36,471 nucleotides of DNA from Gloeobacterales cyanobacterium ES-bin-313. GTDB taxonomy: Bacteria > Cyanobacteriota > Cyanobacteriia > Gloeobacterales > Gloeobacteraceae. Made by a program: the position numbers and the translations under genes. Positions 13,723 to 30,587 of the stretch are shown here, piece after piece (the stretch's first letter is position 1; every line of letters starts with the position of its first letter). Under the pieces are notes generated by a model. That model was not told the origin of the DNA, ran no database searches, and saw only the letters and a program-made list of their open reading frames with translations. The stretch covers positions 1-36,471 of the forward strand of contig JACMLN010000052.1 of assembly GCA_014379585.1 (NCBI GenBank), read 5' to 3'.

Positions 13723-13785
13723 ATTCAAGTGTGATATGAAATGATCTTGAATATAGGTTGATGTACTCTGGTGCTATTCTTTAAT
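13723..13785 (+). promoter_or_regulatory. Candidate promoter and inverted repeat ahead of the ten-gene locus
   Basis: TTGATG at 13758-13763 and TTTAAT at 13780-13785, spaced by 16 bases, resemble a sigma-70 promoter. Just upstream, ATTCAAG (13723-13729) and CTTGAAT (13746-13752) form a perfect 7-bp inverted repeat with a 16-base gap, a plausible regulator site. Transcription from here would begin near 13792, which supports a translation start at 13834 or later. Confidence 0.35.
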
Positions 13786-13833
13786 TTTGGTATTTTTCCA
13801 AGCCTTGTACCTAGTTCTTTAGTTCGATCCCTG

Positions 13834-15207: not shown

Positions 15208-15230
15208 TTGAGAAAACTTCGGAGGATGCG

Positions 15231-15692
15231 ATGGACAAATTGAGGTGGATTGGAACTGTCATCGTGGGCGCTGTTACAGCTCTGCTGATGGCATTTTTTT
15301 GGCCTTTCCTTTGCTACCAAATGCGTACCTTTATCGGTATCAACGGCAGTGCGACTTGGTTGAAGCAATTCACGGCCATTGGCCTAGTTGGGGTCGGGAT
15401 CAGTCTGTTTTTATGCTTGGTCTGGTATGTGTTAGGCGAGTTCGTATTTAAAGAGTCTGCAACTGGCTTGTGGTGGGTATTTCTGCTGATCACCTTGATC
15501 GCTGCTATCGTTCCCGCTTTTTGGCCCGGTGCTTTTCCCGTCAGGGTGAGCAATCTTTGGGTCGTGTCGCTGTTTTATTTCATCAATAACACGGTCATCG
15601 GATACTGGTTATCTACCTTCTTTTTCTACCCGTCTACCCAGCTACTTGTTCCCCTAGGAGCAGATGGTTTCTACACAAAATCCAAGAGATAG
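15231..15692 (+). CDS. Four-helix integral membrane protein of the ten-gene locus
   Basis: About 153 residues with four predicted membrane helices: IGTVIVGAVTALLMAFFWPF, FTAIGLVGVGISLFLCLVWY, GLWWVFLLITLIAAIVPAFW and VVSLFYFINNTVIGYWLSTF. No enzyme motif is visible. Start ATG 15231 has a strong GGAGG 6 bases upstream; an earlier TTG that overlaps the previous stop lacks this. It lies 12 bases before the tubulin-like gene. The likely role is as the membrane base of the complex whose other parts are encoded around it. The sequence alone gives no specific function. Confidence 0.75.
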   Translation: MDKLRWIGTVIVGAVTALLMAFFWPFLCYQMRTFIGINGSATWLKQFTAIGLVGVGISLFLCLVWYVLGEFVFKESATGLWWVFLLITLIAAIVPAFWPGAFPVRVSNLWVVSLFYFINNTVIGYWLSTFFFYPSTQLLVPLGADGFYTKSKR

Positions 15693-15704
15693 GTAAGAGA
15701 CACT

Positions 15705-17198
15705 ATGAGCAATTATGTAATTGGCATCGGGGGAACAGGCGCAAAGTGTGTCGAGGCGTTTGTACATATGGTTGCTGCTGGTTTGGTAAACCCTTCTGAT
15801 CGGGCCAAAGATATTTCTGTCCTGTTGATCGATCCAGATGTCGCCAATGGCAGTTTGGAGCGGGCTCGCTCTACCTTGCAGAAATACCGGGAAGTGCGTA
15901 CAGTTCCCTCTGTCGGTAGGATCGCTTTTCTGCGGGATGGTTTAGAGCCAGTCGATCGGCAAAAATCCCAATGGGCCTGGAGTCCTTTTGCTGATGAAGC
16001 AAACCCTTCCTTTCAGAGGCGCTTCACCTACGCGGGAATGGGTGTGCTGGAAGCAGGACTATTAGATGTCCTCTACACGGATGCTGAAAAGAAAGCTTCT
16101 TTGCGCAAAGGTTTTTTGGGGCGGCCTTCCATTGGTGCAGCGGTGATGGCTGAAATTCTCGACCTCGACGATCCAGATCTAGAAGAACCGTGGAAAGGAC
16201 TGAGCAACCGTCTCAAAAATGACAAAGATCCAAAAGTATTTATTGTTGGCTCGATCTTTGGTGGTACAGGAGCCTCCGGGATGCCGACGGTGGCGCGGTT
16301 GCTTGCAGACTTCATGAGCACCAGTGAGATTCGAATCGGCTGTGCTTTGGTATTACCTTACTTTTCGTTTCCAGCCCCCGACGCCCAACAAGCCCAACAG
16401 GTTCAGGCGAGAGCAGAAGAATTTCTGCTGCGGAGTCAGGCTGCTCTGAGTTACTACCAGTCCAAACTTTCAGAAGATCGCGATATTTACGATGCTGTTT
16501 ATCTGTTGGGCACCGACGATTTGCCCCAGGTAGAGAATAATAGCCTTGGATCCAAAGAGCAGCGCAATCCCCCCCATTACCTTGAATTGTACGCGGCGAC
16601 AGCGGCTCTCCATTTCTTTGAGCAGCAACTGAATGATCCTGTGCGCACGCATATCATTCGAAGTCCAGGAGTATGTTTAAATTGGTCGCAATTACCTGGT
16701 GGAAAGGTAACAGAGTATTCTTTGGCCAATCTTGCGCGGTTTAGCTATGCCTACCTGGGCTATTTCTATAAGGAGTTGCTTAATCCTGCTGAACTGCAGC
16801 GCAAAAAAGCACCTTGGTTCGGACTTTTCTTCAAAAAGGAGCGCCTCTCCGAAATCGAGGTCTCCCTCAAAAAAGTACGGGATTACTGCGAGTTATTTCT
16901 CGTTTGGCTTAAAGACACCCAGTCTTTCTCAGGGAACTGCCAGGTAGATTTGTTCAGAACCGATACTTACAGGGTTGAGGCAGACAGCGAAGGGAACAAG
17001 CGCGTCAGCATTTTGAAAGATGAGTATATTCGTCTTTACGCTGTCGAGTCTTCCCAGAGCAGGCTTGTTCCCAATACGTTTCTCGATATCAAAGTTGCTC
17101 TTGATCGACTTACCCCTGAGCAAAGTGTTGGCGCTTCCGATGTCGGCTGTTTTATCCATGCACTGTACAAACTATGCAGTCCCAAAAAGGAGCTTTAG
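15705..17198 (+). CDS. Tubulin-like GTPase (Tubulin_2-type)
   Basis: A 497-residue cytoplasmic protein with the glycine loops of the tubulin/FtsZ superfamily. The N-terminal GIGGTGAKC (residues 7-15) is the first nucleotide loop. FGGTGASG (185-192) follows the hydrophobic strand KVFIVGSI and corresponds to the GGGTGTG signature loop. VLLIDPDVANGSLERA fits the second strand, and the segment NPPHYLELYAATAALHFFEQ is a helix typical of the bacterial tubulin-like (PF13809-type) proteins. It is clearly not FtsZ: it is longer, diverges from residue 200 on, and has no C-terminal FtsA/ZipA peptide. By superfamily it should bind GTP and may polymerise. The next gene, an actin/Hsp70-fold protein, starts 2 bases after its stop. 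Confidence 0.82.
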   Translation: MSNYVIGIGGTGAKCVEAFVHMVAAGLVNPSDRAKDISVLLIDPDVANGSLERARSTLQKYREVRTVPSVGRIAFLRDGLEPVDRQKSQWAWSPFADEANPSFQRRFTYAGMGVLEAGLLDVLYTDAEKKASLRKGFLGRPSIGAAVMAEILDLDDPDLEEPWKGLSNRLKNDKDPKVFIVGSIFGGTGASGMPTVARLLADFMSTSEIRIGCALVLPYFSFPAPDAQQAQQVQARAEEFLLRSQAALSYYQSKLSEDRDIYDAVYLLGTDDLPQVENNSLGSKEQRNPPHYLELYAATAALHFFEQQLNDPVRTHIIRSPGVCLNWSQLPGGKVTEYSLANLARFSYAYLGYFYKELLNPAELQRKKAPWFGLFFKKERLSEIEVSLKKVRDYCELFLVWLKDTQSFSGNCQVDLFRTDTYRVEADSEGNKRVSILKDEYIRLYAVESSQSRLVPNTFLDIKVALDRLTPEQSVGASDVGCFIHALYKLCSPKKEL

Positions 17199-17200
17199 CA

Positions 17201-20200
17201 ATGAATGGCGACCAAGGAAAAGCAGGTAGTAAACCCCTGCTGCCCAAGCTAAAAGCAGATGCTACGGTTGCTACCCCGTCAGAGGCTGCCTCTTGGGTCA
17301 GCGTAGACGGGGTGATTTTGGCAAATTTGGCTGAAAGTTTAGTGGTACCGGATCTGAGTGCAACCCAGCGGTCGATCGACTCGATCCCGGATATTTGGGC
17401 ACGGCCTTTGCTTTTCAAGCAGGCGCTGCACAACAATGAGCATCCTTTGCATCTAACAGTTTTAGGTGAATGGCGGGGTTTACTGGCCATTCTCGCTCTA
17501 CGAGAGTGGCGTAACTTGCGGCTCTACACCAAACTTTTGGATCTCAAAAATCCGCCAGATACTGGCTACGACTTTATTAGAGCTGCCAACTCCTTACTCC
17601 CCCGTCACCAAAGTATTTCGCCCGATACGACCTGGGACAAAGTCCATATCCTTTTTTACGGGGACGAACCCCAAGGCAGCACAAAGGGCAATCCAATTGG
17701 GATCACTTCACCTTTGACTTTGGTCTGTACAGCAGCGGATCTTGCCAGCCAGCCAGGGAATGAGAAGCAAAGCCGATTGGATGAGCGCGTCACTTGGTTT
17801 ATCAGCGGCATGCTTGAGGATCCTTCTCGGCACCTCGATCCTGAAGAAAAACATGCCTTAACGTTTTGGCTCAACCACGTCAAGAAGGGCTTGCAAAGTG
17901 GGGGTAGGGTGAACCGCGATGCCAGTGAACTGATCGGTCGCCTGAATGAATTTGTAGTTGCTTTGCGAGCTGATCGGGTGCCGGCGAGAGAACAACACAG
18001 TCTTAGTTCCCGCAGTCTTGCCCTGCAGACAGGCATCTATCGGATTTTAGATAACCCAGTTAAAGGGATAGAAACTCCCCTCCATCAGTCCATGGTGCGG
18101 GTGAAACCGAGCGCCAGCCTCAATCCACCCAAAGATTTGCTGATTCTTGACGAGAGCTTCAAGACCAAACTGGGCATCTGGCGCAGAAATAATCTCGCCG
18201 AAATACGCGTTTTTGGGACAGAAAATCTTGGCAGCATCAATTTTGCAGAACTAGGCGACAATCCAAACCGACTTGGGTCTCGCGCTGGTGCTCCCCAACT
18301 CAAAGATGGAACACGGGAGGCGGAATGGCGTTTCCCCAAAGCCCTTTTTACAGAACGCTTAATGCTCGTGCGGGCACAGGGAACTACTTTCCCAAATGTC
18401 CTTCCGGTGTCGGGGCAGCGAGATCTGATCTTCCGCAATGTCAGCGTCGTGCCGATCTTGCCGATTGATAGCAAGCTTTTGGACTACTACATCCCCTCTG
18501 ATCTTGCTGAACGGATCCACTTTCGTCAAGAAGGTGAGAACTTCATTGTCGAGTTGATGGTCACTCTTGGTTCGAGTTCAGAAGAATCCGTCGAAGAGTA
18601 TAAACTCACCATTGATAGGGTCTACACCCCTCAAGATGTCGAATTCCGCGAAAACTTGCCTGTCTTGGAAATCTGGCCAAACTTTCGGACACCGACCTGG
18701 AACTGCTATTACACCTACTACGATCTAGTGGGACTTGAACCAACAGATGTCTTCTACGCTCGTCCCTATACAGGCACCGAAGAAGTTGTTAAGCGTTCAA
18801 CCTTAGAACGCGAACTCCTGCTCCATGAAGTCACCCGCACCAGCAAACCGCCTGAGGCAATGATCTGCGAAGCTGTCCGCAAAGATAAGCGACGGTTCTC
18901 CGTTGGTTGTCTGCTGCTTACAGAGTTGCCCTTCAAAAATCAGATGCATCAGAGCATCTGGCACATCGGTATGGACTTTGGTACCTCTGCCAGCCAGGTC
19001 TACTACCGCCGAGACACAGGCAATATTCCAAAGCCACTCCAGTTTCAACAGCGCTTTTTCTCTGTGACATCACCTGGGGAAGAGAACCGCTTCGAGATGG
19101 TCAAGTTCTACTTGCCACCCTTCGAGCCAGTTTCCCCTTTTCCGACCCTCTTTCGGCAGGAACCGAAACTGCCGGGGAACCAGCAGGATCCTTACGATCA
19201 GCCATTCTTGCGCGGCAACATTCGCTACTCCAAAGAAGGTCAACTGCTGCGCGGGCTAGCCAATGAAAAAGTCAGTTCGCGCTTCAAATGGGCTGAGGAG
19301 CAGGAATTAACCGATGGATTTATCGAACAACTAGCCCTTCAATGTTTGGCAGAAGCTGCATCGGAAGGTGTAGCAGAAGTACGTTGGCATGTCTCCTATC
19401 CCACCGCCTTCGACTTCGTCTTGCTCCAAATCCTGCGCAACACCTGGGGCTGTGTCTTAACGATGACCCGCGATCTCGGTTTCCAAACCGACGACAAGCG
19501 TCCCAACTTTATGACCGAGAGTGTGGCAGCGGCTCTCTTTTTCTCCAGCAAAGACAAAGTTAACCTCACCCAAACCGTCTGCATCGATATCGGCGGTGGC
19601 TCTTCAGATATCTCGATCTGGAGCAAGACGGAGCTGATTCAGCAGTCCTCCATCAAGTTTGCTGGGGAGGAAATCTTTATGAATCTCCTCAAAGCCTACC
19701 CTCTGATTTTGGAGCGCTTCGATCCAGAGTGGGGCAAGCAGTTGGCCAAAGTCGTTGGCTCAGAATCATTTTACCCAGAAGCAGATTCTCTCCTCCGCGC
19801 TAACCGCGACAAACTGAAGCAGCGTCTCCCCATTGCCTTAGCGCAAGTCCGCGACCCGATGAGCGATCCTGTCTTCGGACTTATCCATCTCATCGCTTTG
19901 GGTGTCTCAGGGATCGTCTTCTACTCAGGACTCCTGATCAATCAACTCCACCGCCAGGGCGCACTTCCCTACGATGTGCTACCCGAACTGTGTGTCGGCG
20001 GCAATGGCGCACGTACTTTTGAGTGGCTCGGAATCGGAGAATTTTCTGAAGATACACCCCACAATCGCCTGTTTGCCGAACTATTGGTTGCCTCTTCGGA
20101 GCTAGAGCGTGTGCGAAACTACGCTGTTAGAGTCAGCTCCGAACCGAAAGCCGAAGTTGCCTACGGACTTGTCCTACAAGATGAGTTGCATCTAGAAGTC

Positions 20201-20569
20201 AAGAAAAACGATGAAGATTTCATTGTCATCGCTGGCGAAGATTTCAAGGATGAGAAGGGTGAGCCTAAAGGTTGGGATACCCTGATTACCGCTGGCCTGC
20301 TGAAATCAGGTTTATCCATTTCTAAGGAGTTAACTCAACTGCGCAAATTTGTAGAGGTCTACAACAACTATGCAAGTAAAAAGGGGAGCTGCGTTCGTGC
20401 TATCGACCTTGATGCCTACGCAAAAGACATCGAAATGACGGTGCAGCAAAAATTAGACAGCTATAAGCGAATGAACGAAAGCAATATCACTGTTGAACCA
20501 CTCTTCATCACTGCCCTCAAGCGCTTGATTGTTGCTGAGACACAGAAGTGGTCGGGCAAAAAGAGTTGA
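17201..20569 (+). CDS. Large protein with C-terminal actin/Hsp70-fold ATPase domain
   Basis: 1122 residues from ATG 17201, which has AGGAG 9 bases upstream; an earlier ATG at 17174 overlaps the tubulin-like gene. The N-terminal half (1-580) matches no domain I know. Its most conserved-looking block is LTVLGEWRGLLAILALREWR, then VHILFYGDEPQGSTKGNPIG and SPLTLVCTAADLASQPG. The C-terminal half carries all three actin/Hsp70 signatures: phosphate-1 GMDFGTSASQVYYRR (D592), phosphate-2 CIDIGGGSSDISIW (D796), and adenosine loop CVGGNGARTFEWLG (G933-G936). ESVAAALFF lies between them, as in Hsp70-like proteins. No signal peptide or membrane helix is visible, so it is cytoplasmic. It may be a filament-forming or client-remodelling ATPase working with the tubulin-like protein. 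A distant relation to SrfB-type proteins is possible but unproven. Confidence 0.85.
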   Translation: MNGDQGKAGSKPLLPKLKADATVATPSEAASWVSVDGVILANLAESLVVPDLSATQRSIDSIPDIWARPLLFKQALHNNEHPLHLTVLGEWRGLLAILALREWRNLRLYTKLLDLKNPPDTGYDFIRAANSLLPRHQSISPDTTWDKVHILFYGDEPQGSTKGNPIGITSPLTLVCTAADLASQPGNEKQSRLDERVTWFISGMLEDPSRHLDPEEKHALTFWLNHVKKGLQSGGRVNRDASELIGRLNEFVVALRADRVPAREQHSLSSRSLALQTGIYRILDNPVKGIETPLHQSMVRVKPSASLNPPKDLLILDESFKTKLGIWRRNNLAEIRVFGTENLGSINFAELGDNPNRLGSRAGAPQLKDGTREAEWRFPKALFTERLMLVRAQGTTFPNVLPVSGQRDLIFRNVSVVPILPIDSKLLDYYIPSDLAERIHFRQEGENFIVELMVTLGSSSEESVEEYKLTIDRVYTPQDVEFRENLPVLEIWPNFRTPTWNCYYTYYDLVGLEPTDVFYARPYTGTEEVVKRSTLERELLLHEVTRTSKPPEAMICEAVRKDKRRFSVGCLLLTELPFKNQMHQSIWHIGMDFGTSASQVYYRRDTGNIPKPLQFQQRFFSVTSPGEENRFEMVKFYLPPFEPVSPFPTLFRQEPKLPGNQQDPYDQPFLRGNIRYSKEGQLLRGLANEKVSSRFKWAEEQELTDGFIEQLALQCLAEAASEGVAEVRWHVSYPTAFDFVLLQILRNTWGCVLTMTRDLGFQTDDKRPNFMTESVAAALFFSSKDKVNLTQTVCIDIGGGSSDISIWSKTELIQQSSIKFAGEEIFMNLLKAYPLILERFDPEWGKQLAKVVGSESFYPEADSLLRANRDKLKQRLPIALAQVRDPMSDPVFGLIHLIALGVSGIVFYSGLLINQLHRQGALPYDVLPELCVGGNGARTFEWLGIGEFSEDTPHNRLFAELLVASSELERVRNYAVRVSSEPKAEVAYGLVLQDELHLEVKKNDEDFIVIAGEDFKDEKGEPKGWDTLITAGLLKSGLSISKELTQLRKFVEVYNNYASKKGSCVRAIDLDAYAKDIEMTVQQKLDSYKRMNESNITVEPLFITALKRLIVAETQKWSGKKS

Positions 20570-20630
20570 TAGCTCCTGTGAGCGTAGTAGAAATAAGGAT
20601 GTGGTAGAGCCGAGTGTTTAAGGAGGAACG

Positions 20631-21656
20631 ATGAGTCAGCATTGCCCAAGATATAAGCTTCCCTACAATGTACTCAGTAGTGCGTTGGCGGTTTTCCTTG
20701 TCCTCTCCGATACGTGTGGAATGCGAGTGAATGCACAACAACCAGAACTTGCAGGTTCGGCTCCCAGTGAATATGAGCAGAGCGCTCCAGGGACAATAAC
20801 GAAGCCTGATCTAAAGGCAAAAAATCGGGCTACTTCAGCAGCAGCCACCCCGAGTGCACCCAGCGACACTGCTGTAAACGGCTCAGGAAAAACACCTCAA
20901 GAAGCAAAAACTGCTGTAGACAAAACTCCAGAACTCAATTGGGTGGCCATGGGAGTAAGCGCTGGCTTGAATACCCTACCATCACTTATTTTTTTCATTC
21001 TTTTATGGCTCAAGCTTGACAAGCAAGCTGAGAATATCAATGCCAAGATAAAGAATTTAGATAATAAGGTTTCTACACTTCAAGGATCACAGCAAAGCAA
21101 AACAAGTAGCCAACCATCAGCGACTCGCCTTCCTTTTGATCCAGACCTTAAGTCTAAACTCGAAAGATTAACTGAGTCCATTGAAGAGTTGAAGCAAGAT
21201 ATCAAACCTCAAGCAGTTACAGTCACTACAGCTATTGATAAACAGGTCGAACCTGACATCCCCATTCGCTCAGATCTACACCCTTTTGTTCAACGTTATA
21301 ACGCCATTTTAAGTAAATATGAGGATAACGCTGAAAGAAAATCCACTTTAGAAGGAGAGTATCGTGGTCAAGTTACATTGGCATCTGTCAGTAATTCTGA
21401 AGATCTCGATAGTGAAGTTCCTCCAGAGTTAAAAGAAGCAAGCGAGCGAGCCACTTTCTATCTGGTTGAAGACGAAACTAGCTATCTCGCATTGCCAATA
21501 CCAAGTATGGCTAGCGTGGGCACTTCCTATGCGAAAGCTATGTACAATATCGAGGGTGATGGGCTTTCTGTTGCAAGTATTCAGAAACCTGCGCAATTCA
21601 AGCAACAGAGCAATGTTTGGAGACTTGTTAGCAAAGGCAAAATGACGGTGGGATAG
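20631..21656 (+). CDS. Membrane-anchored coiled-coil protein with the locus-specific C-terminal domain
   Basis: A 341-residue protein with a very strong ribosome site (AAGGAGG) before ATG. Residues 1-34 look like a signal peptide (SSALAVFLVLSDTCG, ending VNA). Residues 35-100 are low-complexity Ala/Pro/Thr-rich sequence. A membrane helix lies at about 104-129 (GVSAGLNTLPSLIFFILLWL), then a coiled coil (KLDKQAENINAKIKNLDNKV) and a linker. The last 127 residues (215-341) contain RYNAILSKYEDNAERKS, RATFYLVEDETSYLALPIPS, KAMYNIEGDG and WRLVSKG. This block is closely similar to the C-terminus of the next protein. If the leader is cleaved, the C-terminal domain lies in the cytoplasm, matching its partner. 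No known family recognised. The gene is AT-richer than the ATPase gene before it. Confidence 0.8.
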   Translation: MSQHCPRYKLPYNVLSSALAVFLVLSDTCGMRVNAQQPELAGSAPSEYEQSAPGTITKPDLKAKNRATSAAATPSAPSDTAVNGSGKTPQEAKTAVDKTPELNWVAMGVSAGLNTLPSLIFFILLWLKLDKQAENINAKIKNLDNKVSTLQGSQQSKTSSQPSATRLPFDPDLKSKLERLTESIEELKQDIKPQAVTVTTAIDKQVEPDIPIRSDLHPFVQRYNAILSKYEDNAERKSTLEGEYRGQVTLASVSNSEDLDSEVPPELKEASERATFYLVEDETSYLALPIPSMASVGTSYAKAMYNIEGDGLSVASIQKPAQFKQQSNVWRLVSKGKMTVG

Positions 21657-21672
21657 CAGAAGGCATTTCACG

Positions 21673-23526
21673 ATGAGCACTAAATGTATCACCGAACATA
21701 ATGGCAAACTTTGGTTCAGTTCAGCGGCTGGACTAGAAAGCTTAGATCTGCAAAGTTTTGCCCTTCACAACGAAAGTAGCGCGATTATTCCTACTTGTTT
21801 TCTTTCCCCCATTGGTTCGGATTATCCATGGTGCGGCACCAAGCGAGGTATTTATACTTTTGAGGACAATCTATGGAAAAACTTACGAGTCATTAACGCA
21901 ACACCTAGTGGATGTATTAGCTGTATAACGCAAGATTCGCAAGGCAGTATCTGGTATGCCAACGAAGCTGGTCTCAGTCGATTGGTAGATACGCTTGAAG
22001 CTGTTCTTCAGTACTCGAAAACCTATAAACTTTCGAAAAAGAAAGTGGTAAATTTACTTCAAGATACTGATGCCACCATATGGTGTGCAACAGAAGACGG
22101 CTTATTTGAATATCAGACAGGCAAAAGTGAATTTGATCGCATTAAAGAAGTGAGTATTATTAACTTTACAGAAGGCTATAGCAAAAAACTTTATCTGACT
22201 ACAGTAACTGGATTCAGCAAGTTTGAGGGTCGTACTCGAAATGTGATCGATAATTGGTGGTTAGGCTTGCCAGACGGTGCAACCCCCCAATGTATTATGG
22301 ATGATGCTTCAGGCAGACTTTTATTTGGTACTACTTCAGGTCTTTGTGTGCATGATCAAGAAGAATCCGGGCTTGTACAATTCCCAAAAGACCAAGTTTC
22401 AGTTCAGTGTCTATTTGCAGACTCACAGGGAAGAGTCTGGAGTGGCACAAATCATGGCTTATTCCTAGTAGATGGATACACTGCTATTTCTGTTCATGAG
22501 CTTGCTCATTCAAGAACTAGTAGCTCAACTTCTCGTCCACCAAGTTATGAAATCCCTACGAAACCAACCAGTAGCTTTACTGTTAATTCGAGTAAGTTGG
22601 AAATAGAAGTTAGAAGCTTAAGAGAAGAGAATAGAAAGTTAAGATTAGAACACTTAGACTATCAAAAAGCATTGAAGGAAAATGAATCATTCAGAAGAAA
22701 GGAAAAAGATTGGAGTAAAATTCATAAATCAAATCAGGATGAGATTGCGAGGCTAGAGGCTATTGTAAACAGCACGGATAGTATTCAAATTCAGGGGCTA
22801 ATTGCAGAAATTGGTCAGTTAAAAAGTCAAAATCAGCTATTGGAGCTTCAGACAATCAACAGCACTCAACAGCCCCAAGAAGAAATGAATAGCTGGCGGA
22901 GTGCTTACTATGAATTACTTGAAAAATATAAAGATCTTCAGACGCAACTAAAGCAACAAGCCTTTGAGCCTTCGCTCCCCCAGGAAACTCGTATAATTTT
23001 GGAGCAGCCAATTTCTACTGTAGACGCAAGCTCTGGAGAGAATGTAAGCCTTGAAGCAGATCGAACAGTTGAAGAATATCTCATTCCTCAGCCTCTAGTT
23101 GTTCCGCAAGAAGTGCCAAAGACAGTTGCTACAAGTCCCTTAATGAAAAATCTTCTTTCTACTTATAATGCAGTCTTGAGCAAATATTCAGAAAATGCTG
23201 ATCGAAAAGCTGAAATCGAAAGACGTTTTGTTGATGGAGTCAAACAAGTATCAGTCAGCAATATTCAAGACGTTGACGGGGGCGAACCACCTGAACTCCG
23301 CGAAAGTGATAGAGCCACGTTTTATCTTATTCAAGATGAAAATGATTATCTTGCATTGCCTATACCAGCAATGGCCAGTATGCGTTCTTCCTATATAAGG
23401 GAAATGTACAATATTACTGGTTATGGTGCCTCTATTATTTGCGTCGATGAAGTAGCCGTGTTCCAGAAACAAGGCAACGGTTGGCGCTTAGTCCAAAAAG
23501 GAGCAATCGTCGTTGGTAGTGCATAA
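21673..23526 (+). CDS. Seven-bladed propeller / coiled-coil protein with shared C-terminal domain
   Basis: 617 residues, no signal peptide, so probably cytoplasmic. Seven blades of the two-component-regulator propeller type occupy about 1-275. Blade cores include SIWYANEAGLSRL, TIWCATEDGLFEY, RLLFGTTSGLCVH and RVWSGTNHGLFLVDG. A long coiled coil follows (about 307-430; SKLEIEVRSLREENRKLRLE and later YYELLEKYKDLQTQLKQ). The C-terminal domain (about 488-617; TYNAVLSKYSENADRKA, RATFYLIQDENDYLALPIPA, REMYNITGYG, WRLVQKG) is homologous to that of the preceding gene. In sensor kinases such propellers sense ligands outside the cell, but here no kinase or receiver is attached. A scaffold or assembly role for the NTPases is plausible. 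The gene is clearly AT-rich. Confidence 0.85.
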   Translation: MSTKCITEHNGKLWFSSAAGLESLDLQSFALHNESSAIIPTCFLSPIGSDYPWCGTKRGIYTFEDNLWKNLRVINATPSGCISCITQDSQGSIWYANEAGLSRLVDTLEAVLQYSKTYKLSKKKVVNLLQDTDATIWCATEDGLFEYQTGKSEFDRIKEVSIINFTEGYSKKLYLTTVTGFSKFEGRTRNVIDNWWLGLPDGATPQCIMDDASGRLLFGTTSGLCVHDQEESGLVQFPKDQVSVQCLFADSQGRVWSGTNHGLFLVDGYTAISVHELAHSRTSSSTSRPPSYEIPTKPTSSFTVNSSKLEIEVRSLREENRKLRLEHLDYQKALKENESFRRKEKDWSKIHKSNQDEIARLEAIVNSTDSIQIQGLIAEIGQLKSQNQLLELQTINSTQQPQEEMNSWRSAYYELLEKYKDLQTQLKQQAFEPSLPQETRIILEQPISTVDASSGENVSLEADRTVEEYLIPQPLVVPQEVPKTVATSPLMKNLLSTYNAVLSKYSENADRKAEIERRFVDGVKQVSVSNIQDVDGGEPPELRESDRATFYLIQDENDYLALPIPAMASMRSSYIREMYNITGYGASIICVDEVAVFQKQGNGWRLVQKGAIVVGSA

Positions 23527-23592
23527 ATAGGACATCTAAAGAACTAGAAGATGATTGGTAGGGCAGTTCGTCTGCAATCTTAAGGAGAGGCG

Positions 23593-25872
23593 ATGGGTGT
23601 TACGGGTGTAGTCCAGCAAGCAGGTGTTCTCTGGTATGCCTCCGAAAAAGGGGTGGGGGGCATTGACTTGGAAAATAGAGGTGTGCTCGCCGCTACGCCG
23701 CTCGATGCGCGTTGCTTCTTGGCGGATTCTAGGACGGGTTTGCTGCTGTGTGGCACTGGCAACGGCATTTTTAGTTACCAAGGAAATCGCTGGCAGGCGC
23801 TCAAAATCGATGGCACGGGACCAGGGAGTGCTGTGCGTGCTCTGGTTGTAGATAGCCAAAAGATGATTTGGTGTGCGTCAAACCTGGGACTGGGGAAAAT
23901 GGTTGGTTCCTTCCAGACAGGGTTTGGGTGGCAGTCCACCTACGACACAACCGATGGTTTGCCTAGCCGTCGTGTCGATTGCCTCTGCGTCGATAATCAG
24001 TCTATTCTTTGGTGCGGAACTCCATCGGGATTGGCCAGGTATCAGCCGAATACAGATACTTTCACCGTCAATCCAGCGATTGAAGCTGGAGTGATTGCCC
24101 TCGCAGCGGATCGGCAAAATCAGCTTTTTGTGGCCACTGCAGAGGGCTTAAGCAAGTGGGATGGCAAACGGTGGTCAGAACTTTCTGGTTGGCGGCAACA
24201 TATTGCGGCCTCAGCTGTGCCTCAGTGTTTGTTGGCAGACGATAGTGGCTACCTCTGGTGTGGAACATCCGCTGGCCTTGTCGTGCGCGATGAAGGTATT
24301 TGGCAAGGGATAGATCTAGGGGAGCCAGTCTCTGTGTATTCATTGACCTTGGATGCGCAAGGCAGTCTTTGGTGCGGAACGGAGTCAGGACTATTCAAAG
24401 TAGAAAACTGGAAAGGGATCCCGCTCAAAGAGTTTCTAGAAAGATCCGTTCCGGCTTCAGCCGATGGGATACCTGCACAAACTCCAGAAGCAGAACGACC
24501 AACGACTATCGTTATCCCACCGTCGCCAACTCTGATTGAACCTATTGCATCATTGCAGCCAACAATTCTCAATGCGAATGAGGTGGCCTCGCAGCCTACG
24601 GTACTCAATCTTCCTGAATCTACTTCACTGCCAACAAGTCTGGATACCACCAACCCTATTTTACAACCGACGATTCTTACTACCACTGAGCCTTCTTTAC
24701 TGCCAACGATCCCAACAGCTACTGCTACTGCTCCCGACCGATCATCTGAATTAACAACATCGCCAAATAGCTATATTCGTCTATATGCTTCACCGACCCA
24801 ATCCACAATTCCAATTGGTGGCAAAGAAATTTTTCGCATTCAAGTAGAACGCCAAAATACCGACTCAAATATTTCTTTTGCTGACCTCTTAGGAAGCCAA
24901 GGGATCACAGCTACAGTGATTCAGAAGGATGCCAGCGCCGATTGGGCTAACTTACTGGTCACAGTCACAGAAGAAGCCGTTCCTGGAAATTACACCCTCA
25001 GGGTTCAGGCCGAGGCACCAGGAATAACAATTTATAGTTGCTCTGTGGAGATTGCCGTTGTACCAGCAGTCACTGGGTTGACAACCCCTAATGCATTAGC
25101 GCCTACGAAATTGACACCGAAGCGGGTTAACGAAGAAACAAACCTTGTACCCCTCTTTACTGTTTTGCTTCTCTTTTTATTAGGGGGTGGGCTGATCTGG
25201 GTGTTGGGTCGTTCTGCAGGAGAAAATACTACATCCACCACTCCAACCCCTGAAACACCTTCACCGATTGCTAAATCTCAACCCACGCCCGTACCTCAGC
25301 CTGAACAACCTGAGCCGCAGCCTGTACAAAGGGATACACAAACTAACACCCAAACGGAACCCCCCCCCGAACCTCAGCCCAAGCCTGTTGTGAACAGCAA
25401 TGCTTTCAGCGAGACCGAAGCGGCAAGTCTAATCAATAATTGGCAGCAGATCAAGAAAGAGATCTATTCAGATCCGCAAAACACGGACGGTGAGTCGAAG
25501 TTGGGCAGCATCCTGACTGGGGTGATGCTCAGGGGCAATAGCGGCAATGGTGGGCGCTTGAATTCCTGGCAGCAACTGCGGAGCGAAAGGCAGTTCTGGC
25601 GATACACCCAGGGTTCTATAGTTTTAGTGCCTGGTACATTTCGGCGCGTGGACGACCACACAGCCTTCGCCGTGATCGCGATTACTGAGTCTGGCGAAAA
25701 ATTTGATTCTGCTGGAAACATACTGAAGGATGCTGGCTCCCCCTACTACAACAGCACGTATCAAGTGAAGTATCGCTTTGCTTATGATGACCAGACCAAG
25801 GAATGGCGGCTCGCTGAATGTTGGGGAACCACCAAAACTTTGAGATCCTGTGACCTGGATCGCGAGTCATGA
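23593..25872 (+). CDS. Propeller-Ig-TM protein with C-terminal ARC6-like IMS domain
   Basis: 759 residues, ATG with AAGGAGAGG upstream. The N-terminal seven-bladed propeller (about 1-280) has cores such as MIWCASNLGLGKM, ILWCGTPSGLARY, YLWCGTSAGLVV and SLWCGTESGLFKV. A Pro/Thr-rich spacer repeats (Q/L)PT(I/V/S)L motifs (about 300-385). An Ig-like domain follows (about 393-490; YIRLYASPTQSTIPIGGKE, VTEEAVPGNYTLRVQAEAPG), then one membrane helix (about 518-539; LFTVLLLFLLGGGLIWVLG). A Pro/Gln-rich linker leads to a domain at about 604-755 (AASLINNWQQIKKEI, KLGSILTGVML, STYQVKYRFAYD, EWRLAECW). This fits the IMS domain found at the C-terminus of ARC6/Ftn2. With no leader, the propeller would be cytoplasmic and the IMS domain periplasmic. 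The stop overlaps the next start (ATGA). Confidence 0.85.
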   Translation: MGVTGVVQQAGVLWYASEKGVGGIDLENRGVLAATPLDARCFLADSRTGLLLCGTGNGIFSYQGNRWQALKIDGTGPGSAVRALVVDSQKMIWCASNLGLGKMVGSFQTGFGWQSTYDTTDGLPSRRVDCLCVDNQSILWCGTPSGLARYQPNTDTFTVNPAIEAGVIALAADRQNQLFVATAEGLSKWDGKRWSELSGWRQHIAASAVPQCLLADDSGYLWCGTSAGLVVRDEGIWQGIDLGEPVSVYSLTLDAQGSLWCGTESGLFKVENWKGIPLKEFLERSVPASADGIPAQTPEAERPTTIVIPPSPTLIEPIASLQPTILNANEVASQPTVLNLPESTSLPTSLDTTNPILQPTILTTTEPSLLPTIPTATATAPDRSSELTTSPNSYIRLYASPTQSTIPIGGKEIFRIQVERQNTDSNISFADLLGSQGITATVIQKDASADWANLLVTVTEEAVPGNYTLRVQAEAPGITIYSCSVEIAVVPAVTGLTTPNALAPTKLTPKRVNEETNLVPLFTVLLLFLLGGGLIWVLGRSAGENTTSTTPTPETPSPIAKSQPTPVPQPEQPEPQPVQRDTQTNTQTEPPPEPQPKPVVNSNAFSETEAASLINNWQQIKKEIYSDPQNTDGESKLGSILTGVMLRGNSGNGGRLNSWQQLRSERQFWRYTQGSIVLVPGTFRRVDDHTAFAVIAITESGEKFDSAGNILKDAGSPYYNSTYQVKYRFAYDDQTKEWRLAECWGTTKTLRSCDLDRES
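25360..25368 (+). repeat. Run of nine cytosines in a coding linker
   Basis: An uninterrupted C9 tract encodes prolines (about residues 589-592) between the membrane helix and the IMS domain of the propeller-IMS protein. Such tracts are prone to slippage; a one-base change would remove the IMS domain while leaving the propeller and membrane anchor. Confidence 0.85.
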
Positions 25873-26681
25873 AACAAACCGAAAAGTGGAAATGGTTCTA
25901 CTTGCTTTTGGGTGTCTTTATTGTTGGCAATCTTGGTGCTATGGCTTTTGTCAAATTTGTGATGACACTTCGCGACACGACCGCCCAAACAGAAACATCA
26001 ATCATGCCTTCTGTACCACAAGTTTCCACTGTCCCGAATTCCGTTCCACAGGTCGCTGCTGAACCAACTTCTGCCCCAAAAAGCGCTGTCTCATCGGTTC
26101 CCACGAATACATCATTGGTTTCTGTCTCACCGAATCTTAGTGTAGAAAAGTACGGTCATCTTCCTTACCAAGAAGCCTCCCAAGCTGATGTTGAACTCGT
26201 TGGTAGTTACGGCCTGAGTCAAAAAGACGAGCGCTATGAATTCTTGCACAAAGAAGCCAGTCATGCCTGGTTGCACATGCAATTTGCTGCCCGCGATGAA
26301 GGGGTATGGTTGATCATTATTTCGGGTTTTCGGACGGAGGTTCGCCAGACAAAAGTATTTCTAGATCAGCTCAAGAAAAAGAAGAATGAAGCTGCTGCCG
26401 CTCGCTACGTCGCCCCTCCTGGCTTTAGCGAGCATCATACTGGATACACCCTCGACCTTGGTGATGGTAGTGCGCCAAAGACGGATCTTAAAACAGAATT
26501 TGAGCGAACAAAAGCTTTTCGCTGGTTGACGAAACACGCCCAAAAATACGGATTTGAAATGTCTTTTGGCCCTAACCAAAAGGAGACAGGCGTTGCCTAC
26601 GAACCGTGGCATTGGCGCTATATTGGGACATCCCATGCCCTAGCAATATTTGATCGCGCCAGAAAAAAGAGTCTGCTATGA
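25869..26681 (+). CDS. Membrane-anchored VanY-type D-alanyl-D-alanine carboxypeptidase
   Basis: A 270-residue member of peptidase family M15B. An N-terminal anchor helix (about 5-35; FYLLLGVFIVGNLGAMAFVK) is followed by a Pro/Ser/Val-rich spacer and the catalytic domain (about 110-262). IISGFRTEVRQTKVF is the conserved SxYRS-like region. SEHHTGYTLDLGD supplies zinc ligands H189 and D196. EPWHWRY supplies the catalytic glutamate (E245) and third ligand (H248). All key residues are present, so it should trim the terminal D-Ala from peptidoglycan peptides in the periplasm. It overlaps both neighbours by 4 bases, so it is produced with the two propeller-membrane proteins. Nothing here suggests vancomycin resistance; no VanS/VanR or ligase genes are nearby. 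Confidence 0.93.
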   Translation: MKQTEKWKWFYLLLGVFIVGNLGAMAFVKFVMTLRDTTAQTETSIMPSVPQVSTVPNSVPQVAAEPTSAPKSAVSSVPTNTSLVSVSPNLSVEKYGHLPYQEASQADVELVGSYGLSQKDERYEFLHKEASHAWLHMQFAARDEGVWLIIISGFRTEVRQTKVFLDQLKKKKNEAAAARYVAPPGFSEHHTGYTLDLGDGSAPKTDLKTEFERTKAFRWLTKHAQKYGFEMSFGPNQKETGVAYEPWHWRYIGTSHALAIFDRARKKSLL

Positions 26682-28513
26682 GTACTAATTTGATCGCGGC
26701 GTCCAAAGAATCAGTTTGGTATGTAATCGACGCAAGCCTTTATTGCTTTGATTTCAATCGTCGCAGTGTTGAGGTGGATACAAGCTTCTCAGATCTTGGC
26801 GGTCTCACCATTCGCTGTCTTGTGAGTGTGGATGGCTATCAAAAACCTTGGTGCGGCACAACCAACGGCATCTATTTCTTGAAAGGCGAACAGTGGACTA
26901 AGCTTTCTGCAATCGGGGATTTTAGTCCAGGTACCACCTTCAGTTGTCTCGCTTTTGATGGTAAGTGTGTTCTAGCTGCAGCAAACCGTGGTTTGGCTTT
27001 GCTCAGTATTGGCGAGTATTTTTCTTGGGAGATTCTTTATAATACGACCTACGGATTGCCCAATAATCGAGTGAATTGTTTGGTTATTGACCAAGAACAG
27101 CACCTTTTGTGTGGAACATCACAAGGTCTAGCTACTAAAGATCATGAGCGGTTTAGCAACTTTGTCGCGGATGCACTAACAACTGCGAATATCCTCGATC
27201 TGGCGATCAGTCCAACCGGGCAAGTCTGGTTTGTCGAAGAGACTTCTCTGCGCAAACGCAAGAAGGATGGCACCTGGGAAACAGACACAGGCTGGTCACA
27301 TGGATTGCCTGAAGCTATGTTGCAGTGTCTCCATATTGATGCGGAAGGCATTATTTACGTGGGTACGAACCAAGGAGTAGTTGCCTGTAAAAATGGCATC
27401 TGGAAGTGTATTGATGGAACCGTGAGTGAAAATATTCGTTGTCTCTACAGTGATGGGCAAGGAACCGTCTGGTGTTTAACTACTAAAGCATTACTCTGCC
27501 TCGAAAACCTCAAAGCACTTAATTTGAATGAGATACTAGATTTTGGCTTGCTTCTCAAGGAGCGAGAGGTAAGAAGGCAGTCTGAAATGCCCATTATTTC
27601 TCCAGACACAGCGCTCGATGTTGACGGTAGAGCACCAACCATTTTTTTCAAAGATCGCGACGATACTGTTTTGCTAGCCGAGCAAGATCTACAAATCAAT
27701 GCGCCACAGCCTAGCGAAACTCCTCGCTTAAAATCTCCCCAAGCAGAAAAGCTGACCGCATCTGTGATACTCACCATCGAGCATGCTAAGGCAAAAGCAA
27801 CAAATAGAAGTCCAGCTATTTTCCGTGTTGCTATAGCGCGCACGAACTTTCCTAGCGATGTGCAATGGACGCTGGAAGGCTTGCCAGAGCGTGCTGCCTA
27901 TGGCTGCTCCACGAACTACAATAAGCTCACAATTTCAGTGGATGCTTCTCAAGTTAACATCAGCAAATTGCCCAAGCAAATGATTCCTCTTCAACTGATT
28001 GGGAAAGCGCCTGGTGTCACGATTGCGCCTATAGAACTCGAACTGCGCATCGAGAAAAGCTTGCCCTACTGGGTGTTGCCAACGCTTGGCTTTGTCAGTG
28101 TGTATGCTGTCATTATCATCGCCACAGCTTCAGCACCTGTCAAATTGCTAGAACCAGCTTGGACTGCAGATGACAGCATGCAGCACGCTGCCGAAGGAGG
28201 CATTAATCTACGCGTTATGGTGCCTGAGGAGGCAAAGCTAGGAGAAGGCAAATTAGAAATTTACCGTGGAGATGCTTCTTCACAAGCAGCCTCTTTTGTC
28301 GATGCTATTTTTGACTCCGAGCATGCCGGTTTATTTGTATATAAAAAAAGGTTGCCTGAAGGCAAATACCGTCTTTTAGTAACGCTTCCAGGCTATCGAC
28401 CCTTAGAAAAAGTGATTGTTAAAGAATCCGCCATGGTCACCAAGGCAGATTCTGATACAGGCATTGGTGCGCCTCCCCTCACTCTCGAACGCAAGTTCCT
28501 GAAACTCTTCTGA
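26678..28513 (+). CDS. Propeller-Ig-TM protein with PEGA-like C-terminus
   Basis: 611 residues, no leader, third propeller paralogue of the locus. Seven blades (about 1-275) are readable, with cores such as KPWCGTTNGIYFL, HLLCGTSQGLATK, IIYVGTNQGVVAC and TVWCLTTKALLCL. The link YNTTYGLPNNRVNCLVID matches YDTTDGLPSRRVDCLCVD in the IMS paralogue. An Ig-like domain (about 365-460) precedes one membrane helix (about 464-487; LGFVSVYAVIIIATASA). The C-terminal module (about 505-600; KLEIYRGDAS, LPEGKYRLLVTLPGYRPLEK) resembles a PEGA domain, which is associated with surface or wall attachment. The predicted layout is propeller inside, PEGA-like domain outside. The start overlaps the VanY stop by 4 bases. 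Confidence 0.83.
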   Translation: MSTNLIAASKESVWYVIDASLYCFDFNRRSVEVDTSFSDLGGLTIRCLVSVDGYQKPWCGTTNGIYFLKGEQWTKLSAIGDFSPGTTFSCLAFDGKCVLAAANRGLALLSIGEYFSWEILYNTTYGLPNNRVNCLVIDQEQHLLCGTSQGLATKDHERFSNFVADALTTANILDLAISPTGQVWFVEETSLRKRKKDGTWETDTGWSHGLPEAMLQCLHIDAEGIIYVGTNQGVVACKNGIWKCIDGTVSENIRCLYSDGQGTVWCLTTKALLCLENLKALNLNEILDFGLLLKEREVRRQSEMPIISPDTALDVDGRAPTIFFKDRDDTVLLAEQDLQINAPQPSETPRLKSPQAEKLTASVILTIEHAKAKATNRSPAIFRVAIARTNFPSDVQWTLEGLPERAAYGCSTNYNKLTISVDASQVNISKLPKQMIPLQLIGKAPGVTIAPIELELRIEKSLPYWVLPTLGFVSVYAVIIIATASAPVKLLEPAWTADDSMQHAAEGGINLRVMVPEEAKLGEGKLEIYRGDASSQAASFVDAIFDSEHAGLFVYKKRLPEGKYRLLVTLPGYRPLEKVIVKESAMVTKADSDTGIGAPPLTLERKFLKLF

Positions 28514-28541
28514 CCACAAAGCTATTCATGAGGTATTGATC

Positions 28542-30587
28542 ATGTTCTTGTCCAGACAACTTTCTATTGCTCTCGCCCTTTCTTTGCTTGTCACTCTACC
28601 CGTTACTGCAGCCAGTGTTTCGATCAAAGCCAAAGTGACGGGTAACCAAAACAACATTGCAAAAAAAATATCTATCTTAAATCTTGATAAAGGCAGCAAA
28701 GATGGCGTGAAAACGGGAGCAAAAGGTTCTGCAAGTTACCTCGGATTTACAGATGCCAAAGGCGCGAATCAAGCCTTTAAAGCACCGATGATCCTGCCAT
28801 TTGCAATTTCAAAGCCTGGCACCGAGGCTTCCGATGGCATTGCCCACTTTCCGGGGGGGTTGCCCCCGATCATCAGCAGTGGTACCCCAGCAACGATCGT
28901 CAGTTATGTACCGGACAAACCGAGAAAAATTGATATCAATCAACCGATTCCAGGATCTGCTAAGACGAAGAATCCACCTAGCCAAAAAGGCGGAAATGCT
29001 ACTGCCCAACCGCCCAAAAAAGTGGCGAAAAAGCCACCGAAAAAGACGCAACCGCCTGCTCAACTGATCCCCAAACCACCCATTCAAACCGTCGAACCTC
29101 TAGATTTTTGTGCTTCCCAGTACGGTGGAACCACTACCAATCGCCAGTTTTGCTTACGCGTTGACAAGTCGGATATTATCTCCCAAGCTGTCCTCTCGGG
29201 GGAGTTGCCGGGTGAAATCGACCCGCAGGAAGGACAAGGGATTTCGAAGCAATCTGATTGGGTCGATGATCGTTTAAGTGCAGTCGCTCAACGTTATGGA
29301 AACAACCCAAACGATCCTGTTGCCCAGTTAGCTCTAGGCCAAGAGTATTTGCGTTTCAACCATTACGAAAAAGCTTCCCAGTTCTTGGCAAACATTCAAG
29401 ATCCAGGAACCGATGACGAGTTTAGCGATCTGCTTACCCACAGTCGTATGTACGCGAACTACGCAGTTGGTAACTACGAGCAAGTTGTCCAAGATGCAGC
29501 CAATATCAAGAACAAAACCTACGCTCAATCAATGTACAACATCCAGGCCGCAGCCTATGCTGCTAGTGGCAATACAACTGCATCAGAACAGATTTTATCA
29601 GGTCTGATGAGCAGCAGCGAAGTGCTCAACAATCGCGCCATCAATACCCACACGCAAGATAAAGATCATCCCGAGGCCGCCAGAGCTCTTTTTGATCAAG
29701 CCCTCACCATCAATCCCAACAATCTCAGTGTCGTCAACAACCTAGCTATTCTCGATATCGAACAAAATCAGTTTGGCAAAGCCTACGGGCACTTTGCAGC
29801 TATTTACGATCAAGTTGCACCGATCAATAACTCAGATCCAGTGACGTTAAGCCTTAAACGCTCGACCCTTTGGTACGTCAATAACTATCAGATCAATGAA
29901 GACTATGTAAGGCAACAGAAGATACCATTGGATGTTCTTCAAACTGCAACAGGTGTTCAAGCTGGAGCAATGATACTTAAAACGATTCTTGGTGGCAAAG
30001 TTACTTCTGGGGATATTACTGGCTTATTGTTCGGCTTGGTTGGTTCTGCTATACAACAACAAAAAGTGAATGACGCGATTACGAAAGTACGCAACAATTT
30101 TCTTGACAATCTGACGATGCTACCGACTGTATCAGGGCCAAACCAGGTGGATCTATCAAAACGCATTTCTGTGACTGCTAAGAGCCAGCCAACGACCTCT
30201 AGGCGAATTTCTGATCCCCCAACTCAACCAATCACCCTCTCGGATCAACAGCCTCCAAAACAACCCTCGGCGATTTCGACTGCGCCAACCCAGCCCGACA
30301 CGAATGGGCGTACTGATGTTGCCCCTCTGGTCAATATTGCTGGTTTCAACACCAATACTGATGACCTGAAGCGGGTCATTGGTGACTTGCCGTTACTCGT
30401 TAATTATGCGCAGTATCCTGACTATGGAAAAATGCAAAAGTATATTAAGAATATTCCGCCGAAAGTGCGCACCCAGGCTCGCCGAACCATCGCTGATGCC
30501 CTCAGTGGTAAACCTGTGCAACTCAATAACGACTTAAGGCGTATTCTTTTCGCTTTCATGCGCTTCAAGACTTACGGGAAATTTTGA
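28542..30587 (+). CDS. Exported TPR-repeat protein, last gene of the ten-gene locus
   Basis: About 681 residues from ATG 28542, which has GAGG 8 bases upstream; a TTG two codons earlier is less likely. The signal peptide is MFLSRQLSIALALSLLVTLP (cleavage near TAA-SVS). The N-terminal beta region contains NLDKGSKDGVKTGAKGSASY, a loop pattern seen in periplasmic barrel-type domains. A Pro/Lys-rich linker follows (about 126-187), with a cysteine pair in DFCASQYGG and RQFCLRV. TPR-like helical repeats occupy about 257-430 (VAQLALGQEYLRFNHYEKAS, LFDQALTINPNNLSVVNNLA). The C-terminus is disordered, then helical. A G7 run (28853-28859) opposite CCCCC makes a strong small hairpin in the message. It probably scaffolds the periplasmic parts. 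The 3' end overlaps the convergent next gene by 23 bases. Confidence 0.82.
   Translation: MFLSRQLSIALALSLLVTLPVTAASVSIKAKVTGNQNNIAKKISILNLDKGSKDGVKTGAKGSASYLGFTDAKGANQAFKAPMILPFAISKPGTEASDGIAHFPGGLPPIISSGTPATIVSYVPDKPRKIDINQPIPGSAKTKNPPSQKGGNATAQPPKKVAKKPPKKTQPPAQLIPKPPIQTVEPLDFCASQYGGTTTNRQFCLRVDKSDIISQAVLSGELPGEIDPQEGQGISKQSDWVDDRLSAVAQRYGNNPNDPVAQLALGQEYLRFNHYEKASQFLANIQDPGTDDEFSDLLTHSRMYANYAVGNYEQVVQDAANIKNKTYAQSMYNIQAAAYAASGNTTASEQILSGLMSSSEVLNNRAINTHTQDKDHPEAARALFDQALTINPNNLSVVNNLAILDIEQNQFGKAYGHFAAIYDQVAPINNSDPVTLSLKRSTLWYVNNYQINEDYVRQQKIPLDVLQTATGVQAGAMILKTILGGKVTSGDITGLLFGLVGSAIQQQKVNDAITKVRNNFLDNLTMLPTVSGPNQVDLSKRISVTAKSQPTTSRRISDPPTQPITLSDQQPPKQPSAISTAPTQPDTNGRTDVAPLVNIAGFNTNTDDLKRVIGDLPLLVNYAQYPDYGKMQKYIKNIPPKVRTQARRTIADALSGKPVQLNNDLRRILFAFMRFKTYGKF

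What the first reader, a model, noticed from the sequence alone, without database searches (positions are those of the whole stretch)
21673..28513. Three paralogous seven-bladed propellers with three different C-terminal outputs
Genes at 21673, 23593 and 26678 each open with seven WCGT..GL-type blades at the same register. Blade 4 entry links match (YDTTDGLPSRRVDCL and YNTTYGLPNNRVNCL). The C-termini differ: coiled coil plus shared domain; Ig-TM-IMS; Ig-TM-PEGA. None has a leader peptide, so the propellers should sit in the cytoplasm, unlike the periplasmic sensor propellers of hybrid kinases. They could form one hetero-oligomeric platform under the membrane.
Basis: partly seen in the sequence, partly recalled or inferred. 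Interest (0 to 1): 0.7.

Follow-up and report, generated by a model that had tools for sequence, protein, structure and literature searches.

The report
Propeller trio in cytoskeleton-like operon
In a primitive cyanobacterium, three sister proteins with wheel-shaped docking domains, probably inside the cell, have been added to an operon of tubulin-like and actin-like proteins whose apparent counterparts in another cyanobacterium are needed for movement toward light, and they may link that machinery to the cell envelope.

Summary
bp1 (21673), bp2 (23593) and bp3 (26678) each start with seven Reg_prop blades in one register, followed by different tails. The three propellers form one clade (98/97): they arose by duplication in this lineage. 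bp1's tail is a copy of the neighbouring gene's tail (54% identical). No leader was missed and the propellers are cysteine-rich (9-14 Cys against 0-3 in secreted Reg_prop proteins), so a cytoplasmic location is well supported, not proven. Of the tail calls, IMS is confirmed; Ig and PEGA rest on weak similarity.

The window lies in Gloeobacterales. The genes belong to a ten-gene run built on a conserved core: vWA-like protein, small membrane protein, Tubulin_2 (FtsZl1) protein, actin-like ATPase, coiled-coil adaptor. The core recurs across cyanobacteria and other phyla; by published domain order it matches Synechocystis sll0443-0449, whose disruption impairs phototaxis. A propeller gene beside the core occurs in five Gloeobacterales relatives (one each), three here, and none of 91 other loci. 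In nine genomes of the order core and propeller are present (6) or absent (3) together.

Best reading: cytoplasmic docking hubs joining this machine to exchangeable envelope domains. A hetero-oligomeric platform is plausible but untested. New variant of a known kind.

The parts
13771..15207 (+). vWA-like exported protein of the core (478 aa; true start probably further in); lipoprotein-like N-terminus by eye
   Evidence: ORF; hydrophobic N-terminus; no Pfam hit; homologues in the same place in relatives. vWA label rests on a DxTxS-like stretch seen by eye
15204..15692 (+). small multi-TM membrane protein of the core (162 aa)
   Evidence: three hydrophobic stretches; homologues next to tub in relatives
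15705..17198 (+). Tubulin_2 / FtsZl1-type GTPase-like protein (497 aa)
   Evidence: PF13809 40.2 bits over cut-off 27; GGTG loop invariant in 21 aligned sequences
17174..20569 (+). actin-like (MreB/FtsA-fold) ATPase-like protein (1131 aa)
   Evidence: MreB_Mbl E 3.6e-5 just under cut-off, FtsA E 0.027; orthologues in order relatives 42-44% identical
20631..21656 (+). cc1: leader-like N-terminus, TM at 109-127, coiled coil, C-terminal shared adaptor domain (residues about 213-341)
21673..23526 (+). bp1: seven-bladed propeller (1-281), coiled-coil-like middle, C-terminal shared adaptor domain (about 485-617); no TM
23593..25872 (+). bp2: seven-bladed propeller (1-285), linker, Ig-like region (about 380-490), TM 521-539, ARC6-like IMS domain (610-740)
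25869..26681 (+). VanY-family D,D-carboxypeptidase-like protein with N-terminal TM anchor, between bp2 and bp3 with 4-base overlaps
   Evidence: PF02557 146.4 bits; coordinates; absent from all 97 distinct relative loci
26678..28513 (+). bp3: seven-bladed propeller (1-290), Ig-like region (about 355-455), TM 466-484, PEGA-like tail
28536..30587 (+). exported TPR protein (683 aa), last gene of the run
   Evidence: PF14559 40.4 bits; leader-like N-terminus; its C-terminus matches the small gene after the propeller gene of Cyanaurora

Best explanation
The three propellers are cytoplasmic docking hubs that were added, in the cyanobacterial order Gloeobacterales, to an old envelope-linked machine made of a tubulin-like GTPase and an actin-like ATPase. 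SHOWN by sequence: one ancestral cytoplasmic Reg_prop propeller joined this locus in Gloeobacterales; in the window's lineage it was copied to three genes; one copy (bp1) lost or never had a membrane anchor and received, through a coiled coil, a copy of the adaptor domain of the adjacent gene cc1; the two others keep a single TM segment and carry different domains on the far side. INFERRED: the propellers sit under the membrane and bind peptides or partners of the core (tubulin-like, actin-like, cc1); the cc1/bp1 adaptor domain is the part that meets the filament proteins; the IMS and PEGA-like tails and the VanY protein act in the periplasm at or near peptidoglycan. The whole would couple a filament system inside to the envelope outside, in the service of pilus-based motility or of envelope remodelling, as its apparent counterpart in Synechocystis is needed for phototaxis.
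For: Seven-blade register and common origin. All nine locus propellers form one clade against eleven secreted Reg_prop rows, 100/99. Propeller beside the core in 5 of 5 other Gloeobacterales loci that have the core and in 0 of 91 other distinct loci, of which 68 show act; in the nine genomes of the order, propeller, tub and act are together present (6) or together absent (3). Domain fusion: bp1 tail and cc1 tail 53.8% identical, E 6e-40; sister rows in the domain tree, 99/93. The adaptor domain is a core partner: found with act in 38 of 44 other cyanobacterial loci. Ten genes on one strand with overlaps or gaps of at most 66 bases. Topology: no missed leader; propeller Cys 9-14 against 0-3; K+R on the N side of the TM exceed the C side in 5 of 7 propeller proteins (1 tie, 1 reverse), and the reverse holds for 6 of 7 TM-bearing cc1-type rows, with 1 tie, once L069_10 (its leader was scored) and L070_6 (no TM) are set aside. 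The IMS domain is that of the genome's own ZipN/ARC6 protein. Function of the counterpart: PMC9880817, passages read: disruption of sll0445 (Tubulin_2), sll0446 (FtsA-like) or sll0447 (coiled coil) impairs phototaxis, and the proteins co-fractionate with pilus proteins Slr2015/Slr2018.
Against: No interaction was tested. Ig-like modules are usually extracytoplasmic, yet here would lie on the cytoplasmic side of the TM. The positive-inside signal is weak in bp2 and bp3 (3 against 1 and 2 against 1). The core lacks propellers in most lineages, so they cannot be part of its basic mechanism. The Synechocystis counterpart was matched by domain order and domain names in papers, not by a sequence comparison with PCC 6803 itself. 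Its authors propose a thylakoid-plasma membrane link, which cannot apply to Gloeobacter (no thylakoids; recalled).
Confidence: 0.6

Rival explanations
1. The propellers are sensors, not scaffolds: each binds a cytoplasmic ligand or peptide and passes the signal outward through its TM segment to the IMS or PEGA-like head, or through bp1's coiled coil, an inside-out counterpart of hybrid kinase sensors.
For: Reg_prop propellers of solved hybrid kinases are the nearest sequence relatives in the PDB (4a2l E 1.2e-44); the different outputs fit sensor diversification.
Against: No kinase, cyclase or other signalling output in the three proteins. Blades are degenerate in bp1 and bp3. bp1's output is a structural adaptor domain shared with cc1.
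Confidence: 0.17
2. Function lies in the division site or peptidoglycan maintenance rather than in pilus motility: the propeller proteins are ZipN-like recruiters with VanY as effector.
For: IMS domain as in ZipN/ARC6; VanY D,D-carboxypeptidase placed between bp2 and bp3 with 4-base overlaps; PEGA-like tail.
Against: VanY occurs in none of the 97 distinct relative loci; most relatives' tails are not IMS (hhalign of the two tail families: probability 0.2); the locus is absent in 3 of 9 genomes of the order, so it is dispensable; the counterpart's mutants are viable with a motility defect (PMC9880817).
Confidence: 0.3
3. The propellers are outside the cytoplasm (N-out), as in other Reg_prop proteins.
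For: Ig-like modules and secreted Reg_prop relatives are extracytoplasmic; the charge bias at the TM is small.
Against: No leader and no room for one; bp1 has neither leader nor TM; 9-14 Cys per propeller; the IMS family is on the periplasmic side in ZipN/ARC6 (recalled).
Confidence: 0.07
4. The propeller genes are neighbours only, with no functional tie to the tubulin/actin core.
For: Most lineages with the core have no propeller there (0 of 91 other loci).
Against: Retained next to the core in all five other Gloeobacterales loci that have it, across two families, gained and lost with it, and fused to the core's adaptor domain in bp1.
Confidence: 0.07

Closest known systems
Synechocystis sp. 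PCC 6803 sll0443-sll0449 transcription unit (Sll0445 Tubulin_2, Sll0446 FtsA-like, Sll0447 'DivIC' coiled coil)
   Same: Same succession Tubulin_2, actin/FtsA-like, TM plus coiled-coil protein; the shared-domain protein of another cyanobacterium, L033_7, also gives a weak DivIC hit on its coiled coil (E 0.029). Regulated by SYCRP1/LexA, needed for phototaxis (PMC9880817, PMC2633013, PMC4759255, PMC12313861: passages only).
   Different: No propeller gene was found at any of 44 other cyanobacterial loci. PCC 6803 itself was not in hand for a sequence comparison.
FtsZl1 / vWA predicted membrane-remodelling operons (Makarova and Koonin 2010, PMC2875224)
   Same: Tubulin_2 protein with a vWA-type partner and membrane proteins (sections read: first part and section 6). 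PMC9871819 (passages) equates that family with PF13809.
   Different: The paper's usual P-loop GTPase, protein kinase and OmpA partners were not seen here; an actin-like ATPase, propellers and VanY are present. The word propeller does not occur in the paper's main text.
Reg_prop hybrid two-component sensors (HTCS; for example BT4663, PDB 4a2l)
   Same: Same blade family and propeller fold (4a2l_D Z 23.9, 3.3 A, 263 residues).
   Different: HTCS of this genome have roughly twice the propeller length, leader-like N-termini and kinase parts, with 0-2 Cys in the blade region. Here one propeller, no leader, 9-13 Cys, no kinase.
ZipN/Ftn2/ARC6
   Same: bp2's C-terminal domain is PF13355, as in this genome's own ZipN-like protein (26% identical).
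   Different: bp2 lacks the ARC6 solenoid domains that the genome's ZipN has and carries a propeller instead.

Membership tests
Reg_prop seven-bladed propeller | PF07494 above cut-off and seven blade motifs | tested here: met
   fold of bp3
HTCS (hybrid two-component sensor) | leader peptide, two propellers, Y_Y_Y, HisKA/HATPase/receiver | tested here: not met
   no leader, one propeller, no such domains; own-genome HTCS has Y_Y_Y, HisKA, HATPase and receiver
FtsZl1/Tubulin_2 operon | PF13809 protein with GTP-binding loop | tested here: met
FtsZl1/Tubulin_2 operon | vWA-domain partner with MIDAS | tested here: inconclusive
   no Pfam hit for 13771; DATES stretch seen by eye; homologue conserved in place
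sll0443-0449-type locus | order small TM protein, Tubulin_2, actin/FtsA-like, TM/coiled-coil protein with the shared domain | tested here: met
   (against other cyanobacteria; PCC 6803 itself known from papers only)
sll0443-0449-type locus | needed for phototaxis / pilus motility | not testable with these tools
   known only for PCC 6803 (PMC9880817)
ARC6-like IMS domain (bp2) | PF13355 above cut-off | tested here: met
PEGA domain (bp3) | PF08308 above cut-off | tested here: not met
   no hit in bp3; E 0.14 under cut-off in the homologous tail of L069
GrpE-like exchange factor (cc1/bp1 adaptor domain) | GrpE beta-domain fold | tested here: inconclusive
   3a6m Z 3.1, 2.5 A over 51 residues, within noise; no PDB sequence relative
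Known anti-phage defence system | PADLOC model hit | tested here: not met
   nine proteins of the run (vanY left out), only two hits at E 0.0019 and 0.0094, on a coiled coil and a TM stretch

The most novel reading that the evidence does not exclude
Gloeobacterales have a trans-envelope linker built of exchangeable propeller proteins that couples a paired tubulin-like/actin-like filament system to peptidoglycan. The propellers would be the first recognised adaptor heads for a Tubulin_2 (FtsZl1) machine, and the conserved coiled-coil plus small beta domain of cc1/bp1 would act on the actin-like ATPase, perhaps in the manner of GrpE on Hsp70.
Probability: 0.2. Interest if true: 0.75.

Novelty: new variant of a known kind. 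Interest (0 to 1): 0.52.

Why it matters
Tubulin_2/FtsZl1 proteins are widespread, and no PDB relative was found for the tubulin-like, actin-like or adaptor proteins; their partners are unknown. Here a lineage has tied a well-understood docking fold to that core, once as an ancestral single gene and then as a triplet, with a fusion to the core's own adaptor domain. That names the parts to test for contact. Gloeobacter lacks thylakoids (recalled), so a core that is kept there cannot depend on the thylakoid-plasma membrane link proposed for Synechocystis.

Tried and rejected
Missed leader peptides: rejected, no in-frame start upstream. Unrelated origins of the three propellers: rejected by register and tree. 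bp3 plus Cyanaurora propeller as sisters, which their like tails suggested: rejected at p 0.02, so tails and propellers have partly separate histories or bp3 kept the ancestral tail. Relatives' tail as an IMS domain: not supported (probability 0.2; Pfam gave only DUF3828 at E 0.0075, under cut-off). Defence system: no meaningful PADLOC hit. Fold identity of the shared domain: confident model (mean pLDDT 92.4), but no Foldseek match at E <= 0.001 and best VIA Z 3.5. The bp3 model is poor outside the propeller (mean pLDDT 57.4). Solved relatives of tub, act and shared domain: none at E <= 0.01 for tub and act; best E 0.033 for the shared domain, taken as chance. Promoter and terminator scan: 11 promoter-like sites against 19.1 expected and 23 terminator-like against 19.6, nothing to use. 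Propellers elsewhere in the phylum: 59 of 386 genomes match the propeller profile; the two of these that I opened (L173, L174) are about 370-aa proteins with leader-like N-termini and no Cys in the blade region, and in G042, G078, G083 and G035 the match lies on another contig or tens of kilobases or more from the act match. Literature searches showed no listed paper on propellers at this locus; only search listings and the named passages were read.
Full report
Where it is. The window is contig C56 of a 4.26 Mb assembly. Its order holds nine genomes in the collection; three relatives are named through as Gloeobacterales cyanobacterium ES-bin-141, Aphanocapsa lilacina HA4352-LM1 and Candidatus Cyanaurora vandensis, so the order is Gloeobacterales. 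Downstream genes look like the alkane pair (ADO, AAR) of cyanobacteria (by eye).

The observation. All three genes are where stated and all carry Reg_prop above the Pfam cut-off. Each N-terminal region of about 280 residues holds seven motifs spaced 37-47 residues apart. The same-register sum of blade scores is two to three times the best shifted register for each pair of window propellers. Against relatives the signal is weaker, and for bp2 against L073 the true register barely wins (238 against 222), with no blade best on the diagonal. The model of bp3 gives a propeller over residues 1-282 that matches solved propellers such as Cdh1/Cdc20 and virginiamycin B lyase (Z 24-26) and the BT4663 sensor (Z 23.9).

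Origin. In a tree of nine locus propellers, bp1, bp2 and bp3 form a clade (98/97), with the Cyanaurora propeller next (86/87, not firm). With nine HTCS half-propeller stretches and two secreted cyanobacterial propellers added, the nine locus propellers are one clade (100/99) and bp1-3 again one (100/98). So one propeller joined the locus in this order and was tripled in the window's lineage. bp1's last 120 residues match those of cc1, the gene directly upstream (53.8%, E 6e-40), and the two are sisters among 49 domain rows (99/93): bp1 was made by joining a propeller copy to a copy of its neighbour's tail. bp3's tail matches that of the Cyanaurora protein (E 3e-10), and bp2's Ig-like region matches the Cyanaurora Ig-like region (E 6.6e-5); propeller-Ig-TM-PEGA-like may be the older form and the IMS tail of bp2 newer. 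The four other relatives carry propeller, TM and another tail with two invariant Cys.

Surroundings. Ten genes from 13771 to 30587 lie on one strand with overlaps or gaps of at most 66 bases. The first four plus a coiled-coil protein form a core. Outside Gloeobacterales, 91 loci: tub in 89, act in 68, both in 66, all four core genes in 46, act plus shared domain in 46, a propeller in 0. Of these 44 are cyanobacterial (act 43, act plus shared domain 38) and 47 are from other phyla (act 25, act plus shared domain 8). Many loci are cut by contig ends or by the 20-kb limit, so the absences are lower bounds of presence. Of six Gloeobacterales loci fetched besides the window, five have the core and all five have a propeller gene beside it; the sixth (L074) was drawn from a genome without the core. 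Over the nine genomes of the order, six (window included) have tub, act and propeller and three have none; G386's act hit at E 9e-4 is a 373-aa MreB-like frame. Fisher p 0.012, without correction for kinship. A direct search with Reg_prop in 32 genomes put propellers at the locus only in those five relatives.

Side of the membrane. No start codon lies in frame upstream of any of the three genes. bp1 has no TM. In bp2 and bp3 one TM follows the propeller and the Ig-like region. Lys+Arg within 15 residues of the TM favour the N side in 5 of 7 propeller proteins, tie in one and reverse in one. In cc1-type proteins with leader and TM the C side is richer in 6 of 7 with one tie, two rows being set aside because the scored segment was the leader (L069_10) or no TM exists (L070_6). 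The shared domain therefore lies inside in cc1, as it must in soluble bp1. Locus propellers hold 9-14 Cys in 265-289 residues; seven secreted Reg_prop proteins hold 0-3 Cys in 294-904 residues. Against this stands the rarity of Ig-like modules inside the cell.

What the core does elsewhere. Makarova and Koonin named the tubulin branch FtsZl1 and proposed membrane remodelling with vWA proteins (PMC2875224). In Synechocystis the unit sll0443-0449 carries a CRP site (PMC2633013), several of its genes rise in a lexA mutant (PMC4759255), and disruption of sll0445, sll0446 or sll0447 impairs phototaxis while the proteins co-purify with pilus proteins (PMC9880817). I equate the loci by domain order; PCC 6803 was not compared directly.

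Mechanism. I take the propellers as cytoplasmic docking hubs of this machine. Shown: common origin, tripling, tail exchange, fusion to the core's adaptor domain, coupling of presence. Inferred: contact with tub, act or cc1, and action of IMS, PEGA-like and VanY parts at the wall. The adaptor domain is modelled with confidence and has no clear match; a faint likeness to the GrpE beta domain (Z 3.1) is a lead only, attractive because GrpE is a coiled coil plus beta domain that serves an actin-fold ATPase.

Verdict. The platform idea remains open; a hetero-oligomer is not a general need, since relatives have one propeller gene beside the core.

Noticed in passing
window 25869-26681: VanY-family carboxypeptidase placed between bp2 and bp3 with 4-base overlaps on both sides; no match in any of 97 distinct relative loci.
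   Followed up: partly
window 20631-21656 and 21673-23526; L029, L099, L115: The C-terminal shared adaptor domain has no Pfam model and no solved relative, and is amplified in tandem and within genes at this locus in other cyanobacteria (up to five genes).
   Followed up: partly
L070:207-1139: A second stand-alone seven-motif propeller lies some 5 kb from the main propeller gene at the ES-bin-141 locus.
   Followed up: partly
L034, L039, L106, L110, L122: A second, shorter actin-like paralogue lies downstream of the core in several cyanobacteria, in two cases joined to the shared domain.
   Followed up: no
window 28536-30587; L069:8308-8814: The last 130 residues of the TPR protein match a small gene that follows the propeller gene in Cyanaurora (40.6%).
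   Followed up: no
L123, L126, L130-L166: Tubulin_2 loci occur in Selenomonadales and Pelagibacteraceae; those of Pelagibacteraceae keep act, many of Selenomonadales do not show it.
   Followed up: no
L171:1066-3126: The genome's own ZipN/ARC6-type protein, which shares the IMS domain with bp2.
   Followed up: partly
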